64,000 nucleotides of DNA from Arcobacter sp. FWKO B (GTDB taxonomy: Bacteria; Campylobacterota; Campylobacteria; Campylobacterales; Arcobacteraceae). The notes beneath the pieces are model-generated. The model was not told the origin of the DNA. It did no database searches and saw nothing but the letters and a program-made list of their open reading frames with translations. Below, piece after piece: positions 7,007 to 60,493 of the stretch (its first letter is position 1; each line of letters begins with the position of its first letter). The translations under genes and the position numbers were made by a program. The DNA lies in NCBI RefSeq assembly GCF_014844135.1, contig NZ_CP041403.1, forward strand, positions 248,001 through 312,000. Direction: 5' to 3'.

Positions 7007-7054
7007 GGAACACCAGTTTTAACTGGTAAAATCACCGATTAAAATCGGCGTTCC
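7007..7054. repeat. Two-hairpin palindromic element, copy A
   Basis: 48 bp: outer arms GGAACACC (7007-7014) and GGCGTTCC (7047-7054) enclose two mini-hairpins, CCAGTTTTAACTGG and CCGATTAAAATCGG. The element ends exactly at the stop codon of trpF (7055). Related copies are at 40433, 53878, 55961 and, inside a gene, 58957. Confidence 0.85.
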
Positions 7055-15177: not shown

Positions 15178-15696
15178 ATGTTTAACTTTTTAGGCAGTAG
15201 TTTATGGAAAAGTAGATTTATAGTACTTTTGGCTGTAGTTTTTGGCTTTGTTGGTGCGGTATTACTTTTTATAGTTGCAAGTATGGACATAATTAGTGTT
15301 GCTACATATGTCATTAAAACCATAATTACAGGAGCCCATCCTGAACACTTCCATGAAGATATTGTTGCTGGTATTATAGGTGCAGTTGATTTATACCTGA
15401 TTGCAATTGTAATGCTTATTTTTTCTTTTGGTATATATGAGCTTTTTATATCAAAAATTGATGCCGTATGTAATATAGAAAAAGAAAATTGTGATACTAT
15501 ATTATCTATAACATCATTAGATCAACTAAAAGACAAAATAGCTAAAGTTATAATAATGGTATTGGTTGTGAACTATTTTCAAAGAGTGCTACACACAACT
15601 TACGAAACACCATTAGAGTTATTATACTTTGCACTTGCTATTACTGCACTAGCTGTTGGGCTTTACTTTTTGGGTAAAGTTGGGAAGAAAGGTTAA
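15178..15696 (+). CDS. yqhA: YqhA/UPF0114 family inner-membrane protein
   Basis: 172 residues with about four helices: SRFIVLLAVVFGFVGAVLLFIVAS near the start and the family's IVAGIIGAVDLYLIAIVMLIFSFGIYELFIS segment, then LKDKIAKVIIMVLVVNYFQ. Family function is unknown. Starts at the base following the asd stop. Its own stop (15694-15696) lies inside the first unit of a heptamer array, which suggests that the array has replaced or trimmed the native 3' flank. Confidence 0.88.
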   Translation: MFNFLGSSLWKSRFIVLLAVVFGFVGAVLLFIVASMDIISVATYVIKTIITGAHPEHFHEDIVAGIIGAVDLYLIAIVMLIFSFGIYELFISKIDAVCNIEKENCDTILSITSLDQLKDKIAKVIIMVLVVNYFQRVLHTTYETPLELLYFALAITALAVGLYFLGKVGKKG

Positions 15697-15764
15697 AGGT
15701 TAAAGGTTAAAGGATGAAGGTAGAATCAAAAAACCTTCATCCTTCGCCCTTCATCCTTCATCCT
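15691..15764. repeat. Heptamer repeat pair (site 2)
   Basis: GGTTAAA x3 then GGATGAA (15691-15718); after about 14 bases, CCTTCAT, CCTTCGC, CCTTCAT, CCTTCAT (15734-15761). GGATGAAGG can pair with CCTTCATCC, forming a hairpin between yqhA and hemE. Units are exactly 7 bp on each side but different in sequence. Confidence 0.85.
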
Positions 15765-15785: not shown

Positions 15786-16832
15786 ATGTCAAAAATTTTT
15801 GTAGATGCATGTTTGAGAAAACCAACTCCATATACTCCTGTATGGATGATGAGACAAGCTGGAAGATACCTTCCAGAATATATGGCTGTTAGAAAACAAG
15901 CTGGTAATTTTTTAAATCTATGTCACAATCCAGCCTTAGCTGCTGAAGTCACTATTCAACCACTTGATATTGTTGGTGTTGATGCTGCTATTTTATTTAG
16001 TGATATTTTAGTAGTGCCAAATGAAATGGGTATGAAACTAGAATTTCTAGCAGGCGAAGGTCCTGTGTTTGAAAAACCTGTAAAAACAGAAGCTGATGTA
16101 GATGCACTTCTTGGTGGAGAAGAAGCTGCAAATAAACTAACATATGTGTATGATACTATCAAACTTTTAAAAGAACAACTTGACGCTAGAGGTGATGAAA
16201 AAGCTCTTATAGGTTTTACTGGTGCTCCTTGGACACTTGCAACTTACATGATAGAAGGGCAAGGGACAAAAACATACAATATTTGCAAAAAAATGATGTA
16301 CTCAAACCCTACCCTACTTCACAAAATCTTGCGAAAAGTAACTGAAGTAGTAAAACTTTATATGGAAAAACAAATCCAAAGTGGTGTGGATGTAGTTCAG
16401 ATATTTGACTCATGGGCAGCTGCAATTGAGCCATCTAAATATGATGAGTTTAGCTGGTCTTATATGGTAGAAATTGCTGAGTATTTAAAAGAAAAATATC
16501 CTCATATCCCTGTAATCATGTTCCCTAAAGGAATCTCTGCGTTTATCGAAAGAGGTCTTGTATATGGAAACTTTGATGTATTTGGTGTTGATTGGGGTAC
16601 TCCTATGGCTATGGCAAAAGAAAAACTTGGAAACAAATATGTATTACAAGGAAATATGGAACCATGCCGTTTATACGATAAAGAAGCAACAACTAAATGT
16701 GTACAAGGAATCCAAAGCATTATGCAAGGTGAAGGTCACATATTCAATCTAGGTCATGGAATACTTCCTGATGTTCCTGTAGAAAATGCAATCCACTTTG
16801 TGAAAGAGTGCCAAAGAGTATCTAAAAAGTAA
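15786..16832 (+). CDS. hemE: Uroporphyrinogen decarboxylase
   Basis: 348 residues. Opens with the family signature [16 protein letters not shown] containing the catalytic Arg residues, followed by [12 protein letters not shown] with the active-site Asp, [16 protein letters not shown], and [10 protein letters not shown]. Converts uroporphyrinogen III to coproporphyrinogen III in haem biosynthesis. The gene is bracketed by two heptamer repeat elements, so it probably has its own transcription unit. Confidence 0.97.
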
Positions 16833-16942
16833 AATCTAAAATCTAAAAGGGCTAATAATGGTGTGGCTATGCCACATTATTTATTAGTCGCTATTGCGAC
16901 ACTTCCATACCTTTTACTTTTTAGATTTTAGATTTTAGATTA
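16832..16942. repeat. Heptamer repeats enclosing a second two-hairpin palindrome (site 3)
   Basis: Outer units AAATCTA x2 (16832-16845) face TAGATTT x2 plus TAGATTA (16922-16942), giving long complementary arms. The core 16861-16902 has arms GTGTGGC and GCGACAC around two mini-hairpins, TGGC-TAT-GCCA and TCGC-TATT-GCGA, the same plan as the GGAAC elements with unrelated sequence. Confidence 0.8.
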
Positions 16943-17944: not shown

Positions 17945-17968
17945 TCCACCCTATTTATTCAAATAGAT

Positions 17969-18043
<75 letters not shown>

Positions 18044-18079
18044 CTCTTTTTAGAATAAATTGATTTACTTTTTATATGT

Positions 18080-18154
<75 letters not shown>

Positions 18155-18276
18155 CTTTTTTAATAAACTCTTTCACACTTAGATTACTTATTTTATTATT
18201 TACCAATAGCAACTTTAAGGTGTTTTAATATCTATTTAGTTACAATTATGTAATACATTGTAATATAGGTTGTTAT

Positions 18277-34460: not shown

Positions 34461-34515
34461 CATAAGTCGTAAACTGTAAAAACTCCACACTATCAACTAT
34501 CAACTATCAACTATC
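34461..34515. repeat. Heptamer repeat pair (site 4)
   Basis: CATAAGT, CGTAAAC, TGTAAAA (34461-34481), then CTATCAA x3 plus CTATC (34490-34515). The second array runs into the stop codon of rny. The two arrays do not pair with each other. Confidence 0.8.
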
Positions 34516-39491: not shown

Positions 39492-39492
39492 T

Positions 39493-39562
39493 AAGGGTTA
39501 AGGGTTAAGATAGCTATTGAGGGTTTTATTTTTCTGAAACCTGAAACCTTAACCCTGAAACC
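39493..39562. repeat. Heptamer repeat pair (site 5)
   Basis: AAGGGTT x2 (39493-39506) and CTGAAAC, CTGAAAC, CTTAACC, CTGAAAC (39534-39561). AGGGTTAAG pairs with CTTAACCCT, so it can fold and is followed by T8, making a good terminator for the ftsY operon. Confidence 0.85.
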
Positions 39563-39583
39563 TTTTTTTTAAAAAGGATTCCA

Positions 39584-40432: not shown

Positions 40433-40453
40433 ACCAGATAAATCTGGTGTTCC
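40433..40453. repeat. Half palindromic element, copy B, with two heptamers
   Basis: A single CCAGATAAATCTGG mini-hairpin with the right arm GTGTTCC; the left half is missing. Immediately followed by CCTTCAC, CCTTCAA (40456-40469), so the two repeat families abut here between convergent lgt and priA. Confidence 0.75.
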
Positions 40454-47351: not shown

Positions 47352-47374
47352 TAAAATTCTCCTTGTTTTTTATA

Positions 47375-47438
47375 GGTAAAAGGTAAAAGGTAAAAGGCAA
47401 TAACTACCATCTACGACCTACAATCTACCAACTATTTT
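47375..47438. repeat. Heptamer repeat pair (site 6)
   Basis: GGTAAAA x3 (47375-47395), then CTACCAT, CTACGAC, CTACAAT, CTACCAA, CTATTTT (47404-47438). The period is strictly 7 although the variable bases of each unit differ. Lies in the leader region of acnB. Confidence 0.85.
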
Positions 47439-53877: not shown

Positions 53878-53936
53878 GGAACGCCAGTTTTAACTGGTGA
53901 TTTAATGTTTATTTGACCAGATAAATCTGGCGTTCC
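53878..53936. repeat. Two-hairpin palindromic element, copy C
   Basis: Arms GGAACGCC and GGCGTTCC enclose CCAGTTTTAACTGG (53884-53897) and CCAGATAAATCTGG (53917-53930); 59 bp. Ends 10 bases before the htpG stop, in the 247-bp gap between htpG and the restriction operon; the rest of the gap is plain AT-rich DNA. Confidence 0.85.
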
Positions 53937-55960: not shown

Positions 55961-56017
55961 GGAACCCCAGATTTATCTGGGCTTGTCTTACTTATGACCA
56001 GATAAATCTGGTGTTCC
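55961..56017. repeat. Two-hairpin palindromic element, copy D
   Basis: 57 bp: GGAACCCC arm, CCAGATTTATCTGG, spacer, CCAGATAAATCTGG, arm GGTGTTCC. Lies in the 355-bp gene-free region upstream of htpG (55816-56170), within the probable htpG leader. Confidence 0.85.
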
Positions 56018-57622: not shown

Positions 57623-58456
57623 TTAATTTATAATTTTTAGTAGATTGTTTTTATACTGTTGATATGTAAAATTCAATGAAGTTTGTCTATTTTGTTCACC
57701 TATTAGTTTAAGATCATTTTCACTATGCAATATACTATCTATTTTAAAAACTACGCTTATATCATTATGTGAGTGCATTAAAGAAAAAGTATCTAGTATT
57801 TCGCTAGCATCGTTCTCTACTGAAGTAAAAACAACATTTTCATAAGACATAGCTTTTAGTATATTTGTATTAAATGTTTTCTTTTGAGTTGGTGAGATAA
57901 ATACATCACTAGCTTGTAATACCATATCAAGCTTTTCTTCTTCTATCAATAAAAACCTATGTTTTGTTTTGAGTCTTGCTATAAATAGCCTTATTGTATC
58001 TAATGATTTAGTATCTCCAATGATACAAGCTTTTGCAAATTTGAAATTAAGATTATTGACCATAGAGATAAACTCTTTTATTCCGCCATTTTTAAAGTCA
58101 CTATCATAAAATGTAACAAATCGTGTTTCAGTTCTTAAACCATATATATCACACATATCTTGTTTTGCTTGAGCCTTAGAAAACTCTTCATTAGCATCGA
58201 TACAAGGGTAAATTAGCTCAATTTGTTTATTTTCATATCTTGATGCAAGTATATTTTTTATTCTTTTTGAATTTACTATTATTACCTTTGCATGATTACT
58301 CAAAGAGTCTTTGTCTTTATCTGTTGAGTTATAAAAATAAATATCAGCATATGATTTTTTTGAAAATAATCTCTTAAGTCCATTTTGTTTTTTAAATTCT
58401 TCTAAATTCTCAATAGTATCTATAAAATCTATCTTTGTTGATGAATAATAAGTCAT
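57623..58456 (-). CDS. Glycosyltransferase-like protein (GT4/GT1 type)
   Basis: 277 residues. C-terminal GT-B half: ASDVFISPTQKKTFNTNILKAMSYENVVFTS corresponds to the nucleotide-sugar binding region of GT4 (ExxP...EAM). The N-terminal half is short, so the protein is smaller than typical GT4 enzymes (350-400). Overlaps waaF by 4 bases; last gene of the LOS core operon. Confidence 0.75.
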   Translation of the reverse strand: MTYYSSTKIDFIDTIENLEEFKKQNGLKRLFSKKSYADIYFYNSTDKDKDSLSNHAKVIIVNSKRIKNILASRYENKQIELIYPCIDANEEFSKAQAKQDMCDIYGLRTETRFVTFYDSDFKNGGIKEFISMVNNLNFKFAKACIIGDTKSLDTIRLFIARLKTKHRFLLIEEEKLDMVLQASDVFISPTQKKTFNTNILKAMSYENVVFTSVENDASEILDTFSLMHSHNDISVVFKIDSILHSENDLKLIGEQNRQTSLNFTYQQYKNNLLKIIN

Positions 58457-59445
58457 AATCTCTCCAATACATCACTGGATTTTATTTGTTTCATACAGTT
58501 ATGGTGTGAAAGTGGACAAACCCTTTTCATACACGGTGCACATTCAATCTCTTTTCTTATGATTATTTCGTTTGGGTTATTCCATTGGTGAGTTTCTATG
58601 TGTTTTGTGGGTCCAAAAATTGCTACTGTTTTGATTTTGAAAGCCGCTGCTAAGTGCATTGGACCACTATCATTTGTGATAAATAAATCTAAATTTTTGA
58701 TATATTCTATAAGTTCAGTTACAGTTGTTTTTCCAGCAAGGTTTGTATAATTTGTGACACCAAACTCTTGTAGATATTTTTCTATTTCTCCAGCTTGTTC
58801 TACTTCTGTAGGGCCACCAAAAATAAGGATGTCATAATCTTTGCTTAACTCTTTTGCTGTTAGAGCGAATTCTTTTGGATACCATCTTTTGGCACTGCCA
58901 TATGTTGCACCTGGGTTTAGACCTAATAGCTTAGGTGATAGTGAAGAATTTTTGAGACCAGATAAATCTGGTGTTCCAGATTTTGGAACGCCGATTTTAA
59001 TCGGTGATGATTTTGTATAGATTTTTAAATCACCTGCTTTATAGTTTGTTTTTAGTGAGTGATTTACGAAGTCGTTATATCTTAGCACTAGATGAATTTG
59101 CTCAGATGTGAGTCTTTTATATCCATATTTTCTCTTTGTATTTACAAAAAACTGCAAAATCCTAGCACTAAAAGACCTTCTAAAAGAGAAAAATGTATCA
59201 ACTCTACCAAAAGATTTGGCAAGATTATAGATATTTAGATACCGAAATCCCCCTTTTTTAGTATCATCTACTATAATTTGTGATATTTTAGGATGAAATT
59301 CAAAGATTTTTACAGATACATTAGAGCCAAGTATTATATATTTATAATCATCTCCAAAATGCCCTATTATATTTTCTATTGCAGGTGTTGCCATTACAGC
59401 ATCGCCAAGCCATGTAGGTATTTGTATAACTATCTTTTTATCCAT
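58453..59445 (-). CDS. waaF: Lipopolysaccharide heptosyltransferase II (GT9) with an in-frame palindromic insert
   Basis: 330 residues from ATG 59445 (MDKKIVIQIPTWLGDAVMATPAI; ATGGATAA overlap with the upstream stop); the frame is open to 59469. GT9 features: LGLNPGATYGSAKRWYP (donor binding), FGGPTEVEQAGEI, LFITNDSGPMHLAAAF and HQWNNPN. Adds the second heptose of the LOS inner core. Between the two lobes, PIKIGVPKSGTPDLSGL (about residues 147-163) is encoded by the palindromic element at 58957-59007, an apparent insertion that keeps the frame. Confidence 0.9.
   Translation of the reverse strand: MDKKIVIQIPTWLGDAVMATPAIENIIGHFGDDYKYIILGSNVSVKIFEFHPKISQIIVDDTKKGGFRYLNIYNLAKSFGRVDTFFSFRRSFSARILQFFVNTKRKYGYKRLTSEQIHLVLRYNDFVNHSLKTNYKAGDLKIYTKSSPIKIGVPKSGTPDLSGLKNSSLSPKLLGLNPGATYGSAKRWYPKEFALTAKELSKDYDILIFGGPTEVEQAGEIEKYLQEFGVTNYTNLAGKTTVTELIEYIKNLDLFITNDSGPMHLAAAFKIKTVAIFGPTKHIETHQWNNPNEIIIRKEIECAPCMKRVCPLSHHNCMKQIKSSDVLERL
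58957..59007. repeat. Palindromic element, copy E, inside waaF
   Basis: ACCAGATAAATCTGG with arm TGTTCC, 7 bases (AGATTTT), then GGAACG with CCGATTTTAATCGG: two half-elements joined at GTTCC...GGAAC, built from the same hairpin sequences as copies A and D. The whole lies in frame in the heptosyltransferase gene. Confidence 0.85.
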
Positions 59446-60493
59446 TTTGAACCATCTTTTTAAACTCATAAAATGCTTTTGTTTTGATTATCTTGCCATC
59501 ACGGTTATCTACAAGACCATACCCAGGTGCAACTAGCTGATGCCAAAAAACTTTAGATATTTTGCCACTTTTTTTGGCTATATCATAATACTCCACCATA
59601 TATTTTGCATATTCATCATATCCAACACACTCTTTTTCGCTTGTAGGGGCATATGGTGCAGTATTTGATAATGGCCAGTTCACTTCTGTGATATATATAT
59701 CATCACTTTTTGTTTTTGGGCTTAGTCTTGTCATAGCATAGAGCAAATCTATTTTATTTGCTGTATCAAATATCCCCATTTGAGTATTATAAGGGCTTCC
59801 TCTTCTATCAACATAAAGCAAACTTGATAGTTTGTCATATTTTATATCATAGCCATTAAACAAAGCTCGTACAGTATAATAGTACTCAAAATCTATAACA
59901 CTAGGCCCTATAAGTTTAATATCACTATAGCTTGTATCTCTTATATCTTGTAAACACTTATAGAACTTTAAATACTCACCAATACTAAAAAATCCCCATT
60001 TGGTTCTATTAATTGCGTTGCCTATTTGAAACTCATTTGTAATAGTCTTAAATGTATTAAATATTATACTAATATCTTTCTTTAAAAGTTCCAAATCATC
60101 AATATGCTCTCTATCTTGCAAAATATTTATAACTATACTCTTTTTATCATTTTGTATAAATTTGAGTGCGAAATCGTAGTATTTTTGTATATTTTGTATA
60201 TCACTTAAAGGGAGTCTGATTAACAAATTTTTCACTCCAAGCTCTTCTATAAGCTCTACTTGTATATCACCTTTATCAAGATTGACTCCCATACCATATA
60301 TATCACTTCCTTTTGGTGTAGTTGGTTTGAAAAGTTTCATGGCAAGTGTTGCAAAAGGAAATACAAAAGCAGTTGTAATACCAAGTTTTATATAATCAAA
60401 ACTATGCTTTTTTTTCATCTGTTTTTTGTATGCTTTATCTTGTATCACATGTGGTTGGTCTGAATAGTTATCCCAAATAAATGGTGTTCTCAT
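59438..60493 (-). CDS. Glycoside-hydrolase-like TIM-barrel protein
   Basis: 351 residues. One membrane helix (LGITTAFVFPFATLAMKLF, about 37-55), then a barrel-like domain with strands such as NLLIRLPLSDI, KSIVINILQD and DIYITEVNWPLSN; the acidic residue in ITEVNW resembles the nucleophile strand of GH39/GH5-like enzymes. Probably anchored at the inner membrane in the LOS cluster; substrate not predictable. Confidence 0.65.
   Translation of the reverse strand: MRTPFIWDNYSDQPHVIQDKAYKKQMKKKHSFDYIKLGITTAFVFPFATLAMKLFKPTTPKGSDIYGMGVNLDKGDIQVELIEELGVKNLLIRLPLSDIQNIQKYYDFALKFIQNDKKSIVINILQDREHIDDLELLKKDISIIFNTFKTITNEFQIGNAINRTKWGFFSIGEYLKFYKCLQDIRDTSYSDIKLIGPSVIDFEYYYTVRALFNGYDIKYDKLSSLLYVDRRGSPYNTQMGIFDTANKIDLLYAMTRLSPKTKSDDIYITEVNWPLSNTAPYAPTSEKECVGYDEYAKYMVEYYDIAKKSGKISKVFWHQLVAPGYGLVDNRDGKIIKTKAFYEFKKMVQNG

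What the first reader, a model, noticed from the sequence alone, without database searches (positions are those of the whole stretch)
58957..59007. Palindromic element inserted in frame within a heptosyltransferase gene
The same GGAAC/GTTCC hairpin sequences found in intergenic copies A-D occur inside waaF, adding PIKIGVPKSGTPDLSGL between the two GT-B lobes without breaking the frame. This parallels the Rickettsia palindromic elements, in which selfish repeats invade ORFs and contribute tolerated peptide segments.
Basis: partly seen in the sequence, partly recalled or inferred. Interest (0 to 1): 0.75.

Follow-up and report, generated by a model that had tools for sequence, protein, structure and literature searches.

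The report
REP hairpin pair inside heptosyltransferase gene
A pair of short mobile hairpin repeats (REP elements, with their likely transposase elsewhere in the genome) has landed in frame in a bacterial sugar-transferase gene and now encodes a floppy 17-residue loop that sister species lack; in-frame REP insertions are already known, but this family carries an unusual recognition tag.

Summary
Confirmed. In an Arcobacteraceae genome (2.24 Mb), waaF (58453-59469, minus) carries two GGAAC-tagged hairpins placed tail to tail (58957-58977, 58985-59005). They lie exactly where the protein is 17 residues longer than in both sister species and 17-20 longer than in other genera. AlphaFold gives that stretch no confident structure (pLDDT <50), between the two GT-B lobes.

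The hairpins belong to a genome-wide REP/REPIN family: about 125 units in 71 places, with compensatory stem changes. 2 of 71 places are inside genes, although about 91% of the DNA is coding. The other is the linker of a FolK-MnmA fusion. One REP-associated tyrosine transposase (RAYT) gene sits in the densest REP array. Its relatives in about a dozen other Campylobacterales genomes are also flanked by hairpins with a GGA(A/T/G) foot, not the usual GTAG or CGTC. So this is a REP family with a non-standard tag, not a Rickettsia palindromic element, although the outcome (tolerated in-frame peptide) is the same and is published for other REPs.

Extras: in both sister species the waaF site holds a 7-bp tandem repeat instead, and one neighbouring REPIN is inverted in place between species. 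Mobilisation by the RAYT is inferred, not shown.

The parts
58453..59469 (-). waaF, ADP-heptose:LPS heptosyltransferase II, 338 aa, host gene of the insertion
   Evidence: TIGR02195 148.7 bits over a cut-off of 134.6; PF01075; profile match to 1psw heptosyltransferase II
58957..58977 (-). REP unit 1, GGAACACCAGATTTATCTGGT (tag GGAAC, 7-bp stem, 2-nt loop)
   Evidence: one of 6 identical copies in the genome
58978..58984 (.). 7-nt spacer AGATTTT between the two GGAAC tags (tail-to-tail junction)
   Evidence: junction spacers of 4-8 nt recur elsewhere in the genome
58985..59005 (+). REP unit 2, GGAACGCCGATTTTAATCGGT
   Evidence: one of 4 identical copies
58954..59005 (-). in-frame peptide-coding stretch, about residues 155-172 ((S)PIKIGVPKSGTPDLSGL), disordered loop in the model
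   Evidence: 17-aa difference to sister species; pLDDT <50 over residues 160-176; exact borders uncertain because the site itself has diverged
7007..7054 (.). intergenic REPIN with stems AGTT / GATT, 6-nt inner spacer
40433..40453 (-). intergenic single REP, stem AGAT
53878..53936 (.). intergenic REPIN, stems AGTT / AGAT; present but inverted at the same place in both sister species
   Evidence: folds as one hairpin, -29.3 kcal/mol, z -9.0
55961..56017 (.). intergenic REPIN with the CTTGTCTT inner motif
   Evidence: z -6.5

Best explanation
The element is a pair of REP units of a GGAAC-tagged REP/REPIN family that spread in this Arcobacteraceae lineage, most likely mobilised in trans by the single RAYT (a Y1 HuH single-strand transposase) at C1:1660639-1661169. 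Such an enzyme would recognise the foot tag plus hairpin on single-stranded DNA and copy or move the small element. In waaF the insertion fell in the linker between the two GT-B lobes. It was tolerated because it added a multiple of three bases, happened to be stop-free in the coding frame, and the linker is a flexible surface segment. It now encodes about 17 extra, probably disordered, residues with no evident function of their own. Shown: the insertion, its family, its absence in relatives, the open frame, the disordered-loop prediction, and the association of the RAYT clade with GGA-tagged hairpins. Inferred: mobilisation by the RAYT, neutrality, and that WaaF remains active.
For: REP anatomy: 125 units in 71 clusters. 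Of 74 exact hits to a pattern that does not require pairing, 70 have fully complementary inner stems, of 7 different sequences, against 1 in 256 by chance; pattern controls read backwards give 0. 37 of 54 neighbouring pairs are REPINs with the tag outward and mostly 13-21 nt between. Cognate transposase: one PF01797 protein, NF047646 'REP-associated tyrosine transposase' at 79.2 bits (cut-off 80), intact HuH (NHIH) and Y153, profile match to E. coli TnpA-REP 4er8, inside a REP array. RAYT relatives at 41-51% identity in 20 other genomes; across all 21 loci 56 of 66 perfect hairpins carry GGA[ATG] at the foot against 2 of 66 in reversed controls. Insertion: absent in both sister species and all other genera aligned; exact 24-nt identity to an intergenic copy. 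Tolerance: pLDDT <50 at residues 160-176, flanked by confident lobes; the only other internal case is also an interdomain linker.
Against: The two waaF units are tail to tail, not a standard REPIN, so the insertion was not one ordinary REPIN copy. No clean pre-insertion site survives: the sisters have a 7-bp tandem repeat there, so borders and any target duplication cannot be read. RAYT activity, expression and WaaF activity are untested. The RAYT score is 0.8 bits under the curated cut-off. The foot is not the GT[AG]G of canonical REPs.
Confidence: 0.87

Rival explanations
1. It is a relative of the Rickettsia palindromic elements: a selfish palindrome that preferentially inserts in protein genes and has no transposase of its own.
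For: Same outcome: an in-frame palindrome encoding a tolerated peptide. Single units are mostly open in 4-5 of 6 frames.
Against: 2 of 71 places inside genes against about 91% coding DNA; cognate RAYT present and REPIN architecture; only 2 of 67 non-internal places lie between divergent genes, the REP-typical avoidance of promoters.
Confidence: 0.04
2. The loop is an ancestral or independently evolved part of WaaF and the hairpins are coincidence.
For: The sisters also have a slightly longer linker than other genera.
Against: 24-nt exact identity to an intergenic copy, 10 hairpins against 0.58 expected; absent in all relatives aligned.
Confidence: 0.01
3. The REP pair was not transposed into waaF but arrived by recombination or template switching, for example exchange with another REP array or slippage at the 7-bp repeat that occupies this site in the sisters.
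For: Sisters carry (TTGAATG)3.6 and (AACTCAA)4.6 at the site; the tail-to-tail order resembles junctions inside tandem REPIN arrays; one REPIN is inverted in place between species, so recombination acts on these elements.
Against: Tandem junctions join an a-type (C-G-closed) to a b-type (G.T or A-T-closed) arm, whereas the waaF pair joins two b-type arms; no second 7-bp array flanks the element.
Confidence: 0.25
4. The hairpins act as a conserved regulatory or terminator signal within the waaF operon, the peptide being a by-product.
For: The 63-nt stretch folds well as RNA (z -4.9).
Against: Absent from sisters, in mid-gene, no U-run after either hairpin; REP-like folding is shared by the other copies folded.
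Confidence: 0.03

Closest known systems
Intragenic REPs (GTAG and CGTC super-families; PMC3733652, section 15)
   Same: Short tagged palindromes, mostly intergenic, co-directional or convergent placement, occasional in-frame insertion of dimers encoding 20-30 residues; the authors suggest insertions are neutral in modular proteins.
   Different: Foot is GGAAC (GGA[ATG] in relatives), not GTAG or CGTC; no Arcobacter or GGAAC family appears in that paper's main text.
REPINs with RAYT (P. fluorescens SBW25, PMC3116915)
   Same: REP doublets in inverted orientation with a spacer, folding as one hairpin, one cognate RAYT, predominantly extragenic.
   Different: Two arm types (C-G-closed with CTTGTCTT, and G.T or A-T-closed); the waaF pair is tail to tail instead.
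TnpA-REP subclass 2.4 of PMC6006769 (NH[IFV]H, WQ, YIxNNP)
   Same: Own RAYT has NHIH and WQ; the clade consensus is YIKNNP.
   Different: Own RAYT has YIFYNP; that subclass is described with canonical GT[AG]G double-foot REPs, not GGA-foot hairpins. Subclass 2.6 is the one described with atypical structures, in Bacteroidetes.
Rickettsia palindromic elements
   Same: Palindromic repeats adding a tolerated in-frame peptide.
   Different: There insertion in ORFs is a habit of the family; here 2 of 71 places, with a RAYT present.

Membership tests
REP / REPIN | short palindromic unit in many copies | tested here: met
   125 units in 71 clusters; 74 exact pattern hits against 0 control hits
REP / REPIN | hairpin maintained by compensatory change | tested here: met
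   70 of 74 fully paired, 7 inner stem sequences
REP / REPIN | predominantly extragenic | tested here: met
   60 intergenic, 9 at gene edges, 2 internal
REP / REPIN | inverted doublets with a spacer | tested here: met
   37 outward-tag pairs of 54; 37 clusters are singlets. The waaF pair itself is tail to tail and does not meet this
REP / REPIN | cognate RAYT flanked by the same REPs | tested here: met
   RAYT at C1:1660639-1661169 with units at 1660613 and 1661307 on either side
REP / REPIN | GT[AG]G (or CGTC) tag at the hairpin foot, as in the two described super-families | tested here: not met
   Foot is GGAAC; GGA[ATG] in RAYT relatives
REP / REPIN | mobilisation by the RAYT | not testable with these tools
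   needs biochemistry or population sequencing
RAYT (TnpA-REP) | Y1 HuH domain with catalytic tyrosine | tested here: met
   PF01797 47.7 bits, NHIH and Y153 conserved; 4er8 profile match E 1.8e-5
RAYT (TnpA-REP) | passes NCBIfam NF047646 cut-off | tested here: inconclusive
   79.2 bits against 80
Rickettsia palindromic element | frequent insertion inside ORFs | tested here: not met
   2 of 71 places
Rickettsia palindromic element | sequence homology to RPE families | not tested
   no RPE sequences were fetched

The most novel reading that the evidence does not exclude
The waaF pair is a circularly permuted REPIN. An excised circular intermediate, its two tagged ends joined as GTTCC-N7-GGAAC, was opened between the hairpins rather than at the junction and inserted that way round. 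It and the other isolated tail-to-tail pair (C1:940178-940223) both consist of two b-type arms, as do some of the genome's own REPINs (C1:255007 and 301878), and unlike the a/b junctions of tandem arrays. This would be a genomic footprint of a REPIN circle.
Probability: 0.08. Interest if true: 0.65.

Novelty: new variant of a known kind. Interest (0 to 1): 0.42.

Why it matters
It gives a clean example of a REP insertion becoming protein sequence in an LPS-core enzyme, with sister species that lack it. It also points to a Campylobacterales clade of RAYTs whose REPs carry a GGA[ATG] foot. Because guide tag and transposase should co-vary, that clade is a ready test of how RAYTs read their guide sequence. 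The in-place inversion of a REPIN between species suggests these elements keep recombining after insertion.

Tried and rejected
First DNA alignment used mixed strands and was discarded (redone). Several short ORFs overlapping REPs (orf146 with stops inside; orf170, orf111, orf142) and N-terminal extensions (bioA, flgE, orf432, orf546) were not counted as coding insertions because the likely start lies downstream or the ORF is probably spurious. The idea that REPs created the FolK-MnmA fusion in this genome was dropped: the fusion is also open in two sister species. Association of REPs with 7-bp tandem repeats was only suggestive (5 of 130 flanks against 1 of 128 control stretches). Literature searches for Arcobacter or Campylobacterota REP/RAYT systems found nothing specific.

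Full report
What was claimed and what is there. The sequence bears this out: two hairpin units, 58957-58977 and 58985-59005, lie in the 338-aa ORF 58453-59469 on the minus strand, with their GGAAC tags facing each other across 7 nt. Part of unit 2 with its flank matches 7031-7054 over 24 nt without a mismatch. The window has 10 matches to a loose hairpin pattern where shuffles give 0.58. The host gene is heptosyltransferase II by TIGR02195 and by profile match to 1psw.

Insertion. The genome is a single 2.24-Mb contig; named relatives place it in Arcobacteraceae. Two species of its genus have WaaF at 88-89% identity but 17 aa shorter, the gap falling on the hairpins; all other aligned relatives are also short here. 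AlphaFold2 (mean pLDDT 85.4) models two confident lobes and gives residues 160-176 pLDDT below 50, between helix 127-139 and strand 180-185. The extra peptide is thus an apparently disordered linker loop. In the sisters the same site holds 7-bp tandem repeats, (TTGAATG)3.6 and (AACTCAA)4.6, so the exact insertion borders cannot be read off.

The family. Pattern searches of the whole genome and stretches fetched around the hits gave 125 units in 71 clusters; a few degenerate units may be false or missed. The unit is GGAAC, a 7-bp stem and a 2-3-nt loop. Among 74 hits to a pattern that left the inner stem free, 70 are fully complementary, with seven different stems: strong covariation. The closing pair is mostly C-G, A-T or G.T. 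Most neighbouring units form REPINs with tags outward, mostly 13-21 nt apart, usually with CTTGTCTT beside the C-G-closed arm; tail-to-tail junctions with 4-8 nt occur in tandem arrays and in two isolated pairs, waaF and C1:940178-940223. REPINs fold as single long hairpins. 60 clusters are intergenic, 9 touch gene ends and 2 are internal, against a coding fraction of 0.915 estimated from the window; only 2 of 67 non-internal clusters lie between divergent genes. Sister genomes hold far fewer copies (8 and 2 exact hits against 74), but those assemblies are fragmentary (86% complete), so the expansion is likely rather than proven.

Transposase. One Y1 transposase gene lies in a dense REP array (C1:1659-1667.5 kb), with REPs on both sides. 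It scores 79.2 bits to the RAYT model NF047646 (cut-off 80), keeps the HuH and tyrosine residues, and its alignment matches E. coli TnpA-REP 4er8 and IS200-type transposases. Relatives at 41-51% identity occur in 20 of 398 other genomes of the order. In the flanks of all 21 loci 56 of 66 perfect hairpins carry GGA[ATG] at the foot, against 2 of 66 in reversed sequence. About a dozen of the 20 other loci have such hairpins; the rest have none within 1.5 kb. This links the GGA foot to the RAYT clade. It is not the GT[AG]G foot used to define REPs in PMC6006769, nor CGTC of PMC3733652.

Second coding case. C1:491989-493626 is an open 545-aa fusion of FolK and MnmA, with three REP units in the linker (the two names are my reading of the sequence, not a family search). 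The fusion is open in two sisters too, and their linkers carry one REP or degenerate REP each, with different stems. So both internal insertions lie in interdomain linkers, fitting neutral tolerance.

Mechanism. Best reading: REP units, mobilised by the RAYT, entered the waaF linker; survival required a net multiple of three and a stop-free frame. Single units are mostly open in 4-5 of 6 frames, and the waaF pair in 3 of 6. RAYT action and retained WaaF activity are inferred. Recombination is a real alternative for the final arrangement, since the REPIN at 53878-53936 is inverted in place relative to both sisters.

Known or new. In-frame REP dimers encoding 20-30 residues were catalogued in 2013 (PMC3733652, section 15), which also assigns Rickettsia RPE-4 and RPE-6 to REPs. 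The waaF case is a further instance; the GGA-foot RAYT/REP group appears undescribed in the papers I could search, but that library is partial.

Noticed in passing
window 53878-53936 (G000:C1:301878-301936) vs G001:C11 and G002:C8: An orthologous REPIN is inverted in place: its reverse complement aligns arm for arm with the copies in both sister species.
   Followed up: partly
G000:C1:491989-493626: FolK and MnmA fused in one ORF in this genus; the linker carries REP units that differ between species. A second, separate MnmA-like gene is at C1:726885-727901.
   Followed up: partly
L062 (G000:C1:1655001-1672000): The RAYT lies in an array of small toxin-antitoxin-like genes (DUF4160/DUF2442, ParE, HigB-like, Unstab_antitox, nucleotidyltransferase) separated by REPIN clusters; 1.4 kb of it is 99.9% identical to a G001 contig although orthologues elsewhere are about 90%: recent transfer or bin contamination.
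   Followed up: partly
window 6220, 15688-15764, 16820-16941, 34489-34515, 39492-39563, 47374-47397: Period-7 tandem repeats are unusually common, with different unit sequences; the same kind occupies the waaF site in the sister species.
   Followed up: partly
G001:C23 about 2850-2940 (aligned to own C1:491915): Where this genome and G002 carry a REP, G001 has GGAAC followed by a different palindrome, GATCCTGAGTCAAGCTCAGGATGAC.
   Followed up: no
G000:C1:462458-463005, 1294210, 2125573-2129225 and L201: REPs at these places are embedded in longer repeats of about 130-240 bp shared with G001 at 80-97% identity, possibly a larger mobile element.
   Followed up: no
window 17963-18166: Two nearly identical tandem tRNA-Asn-like genes (95% over 93 nt).
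   Followed up: no
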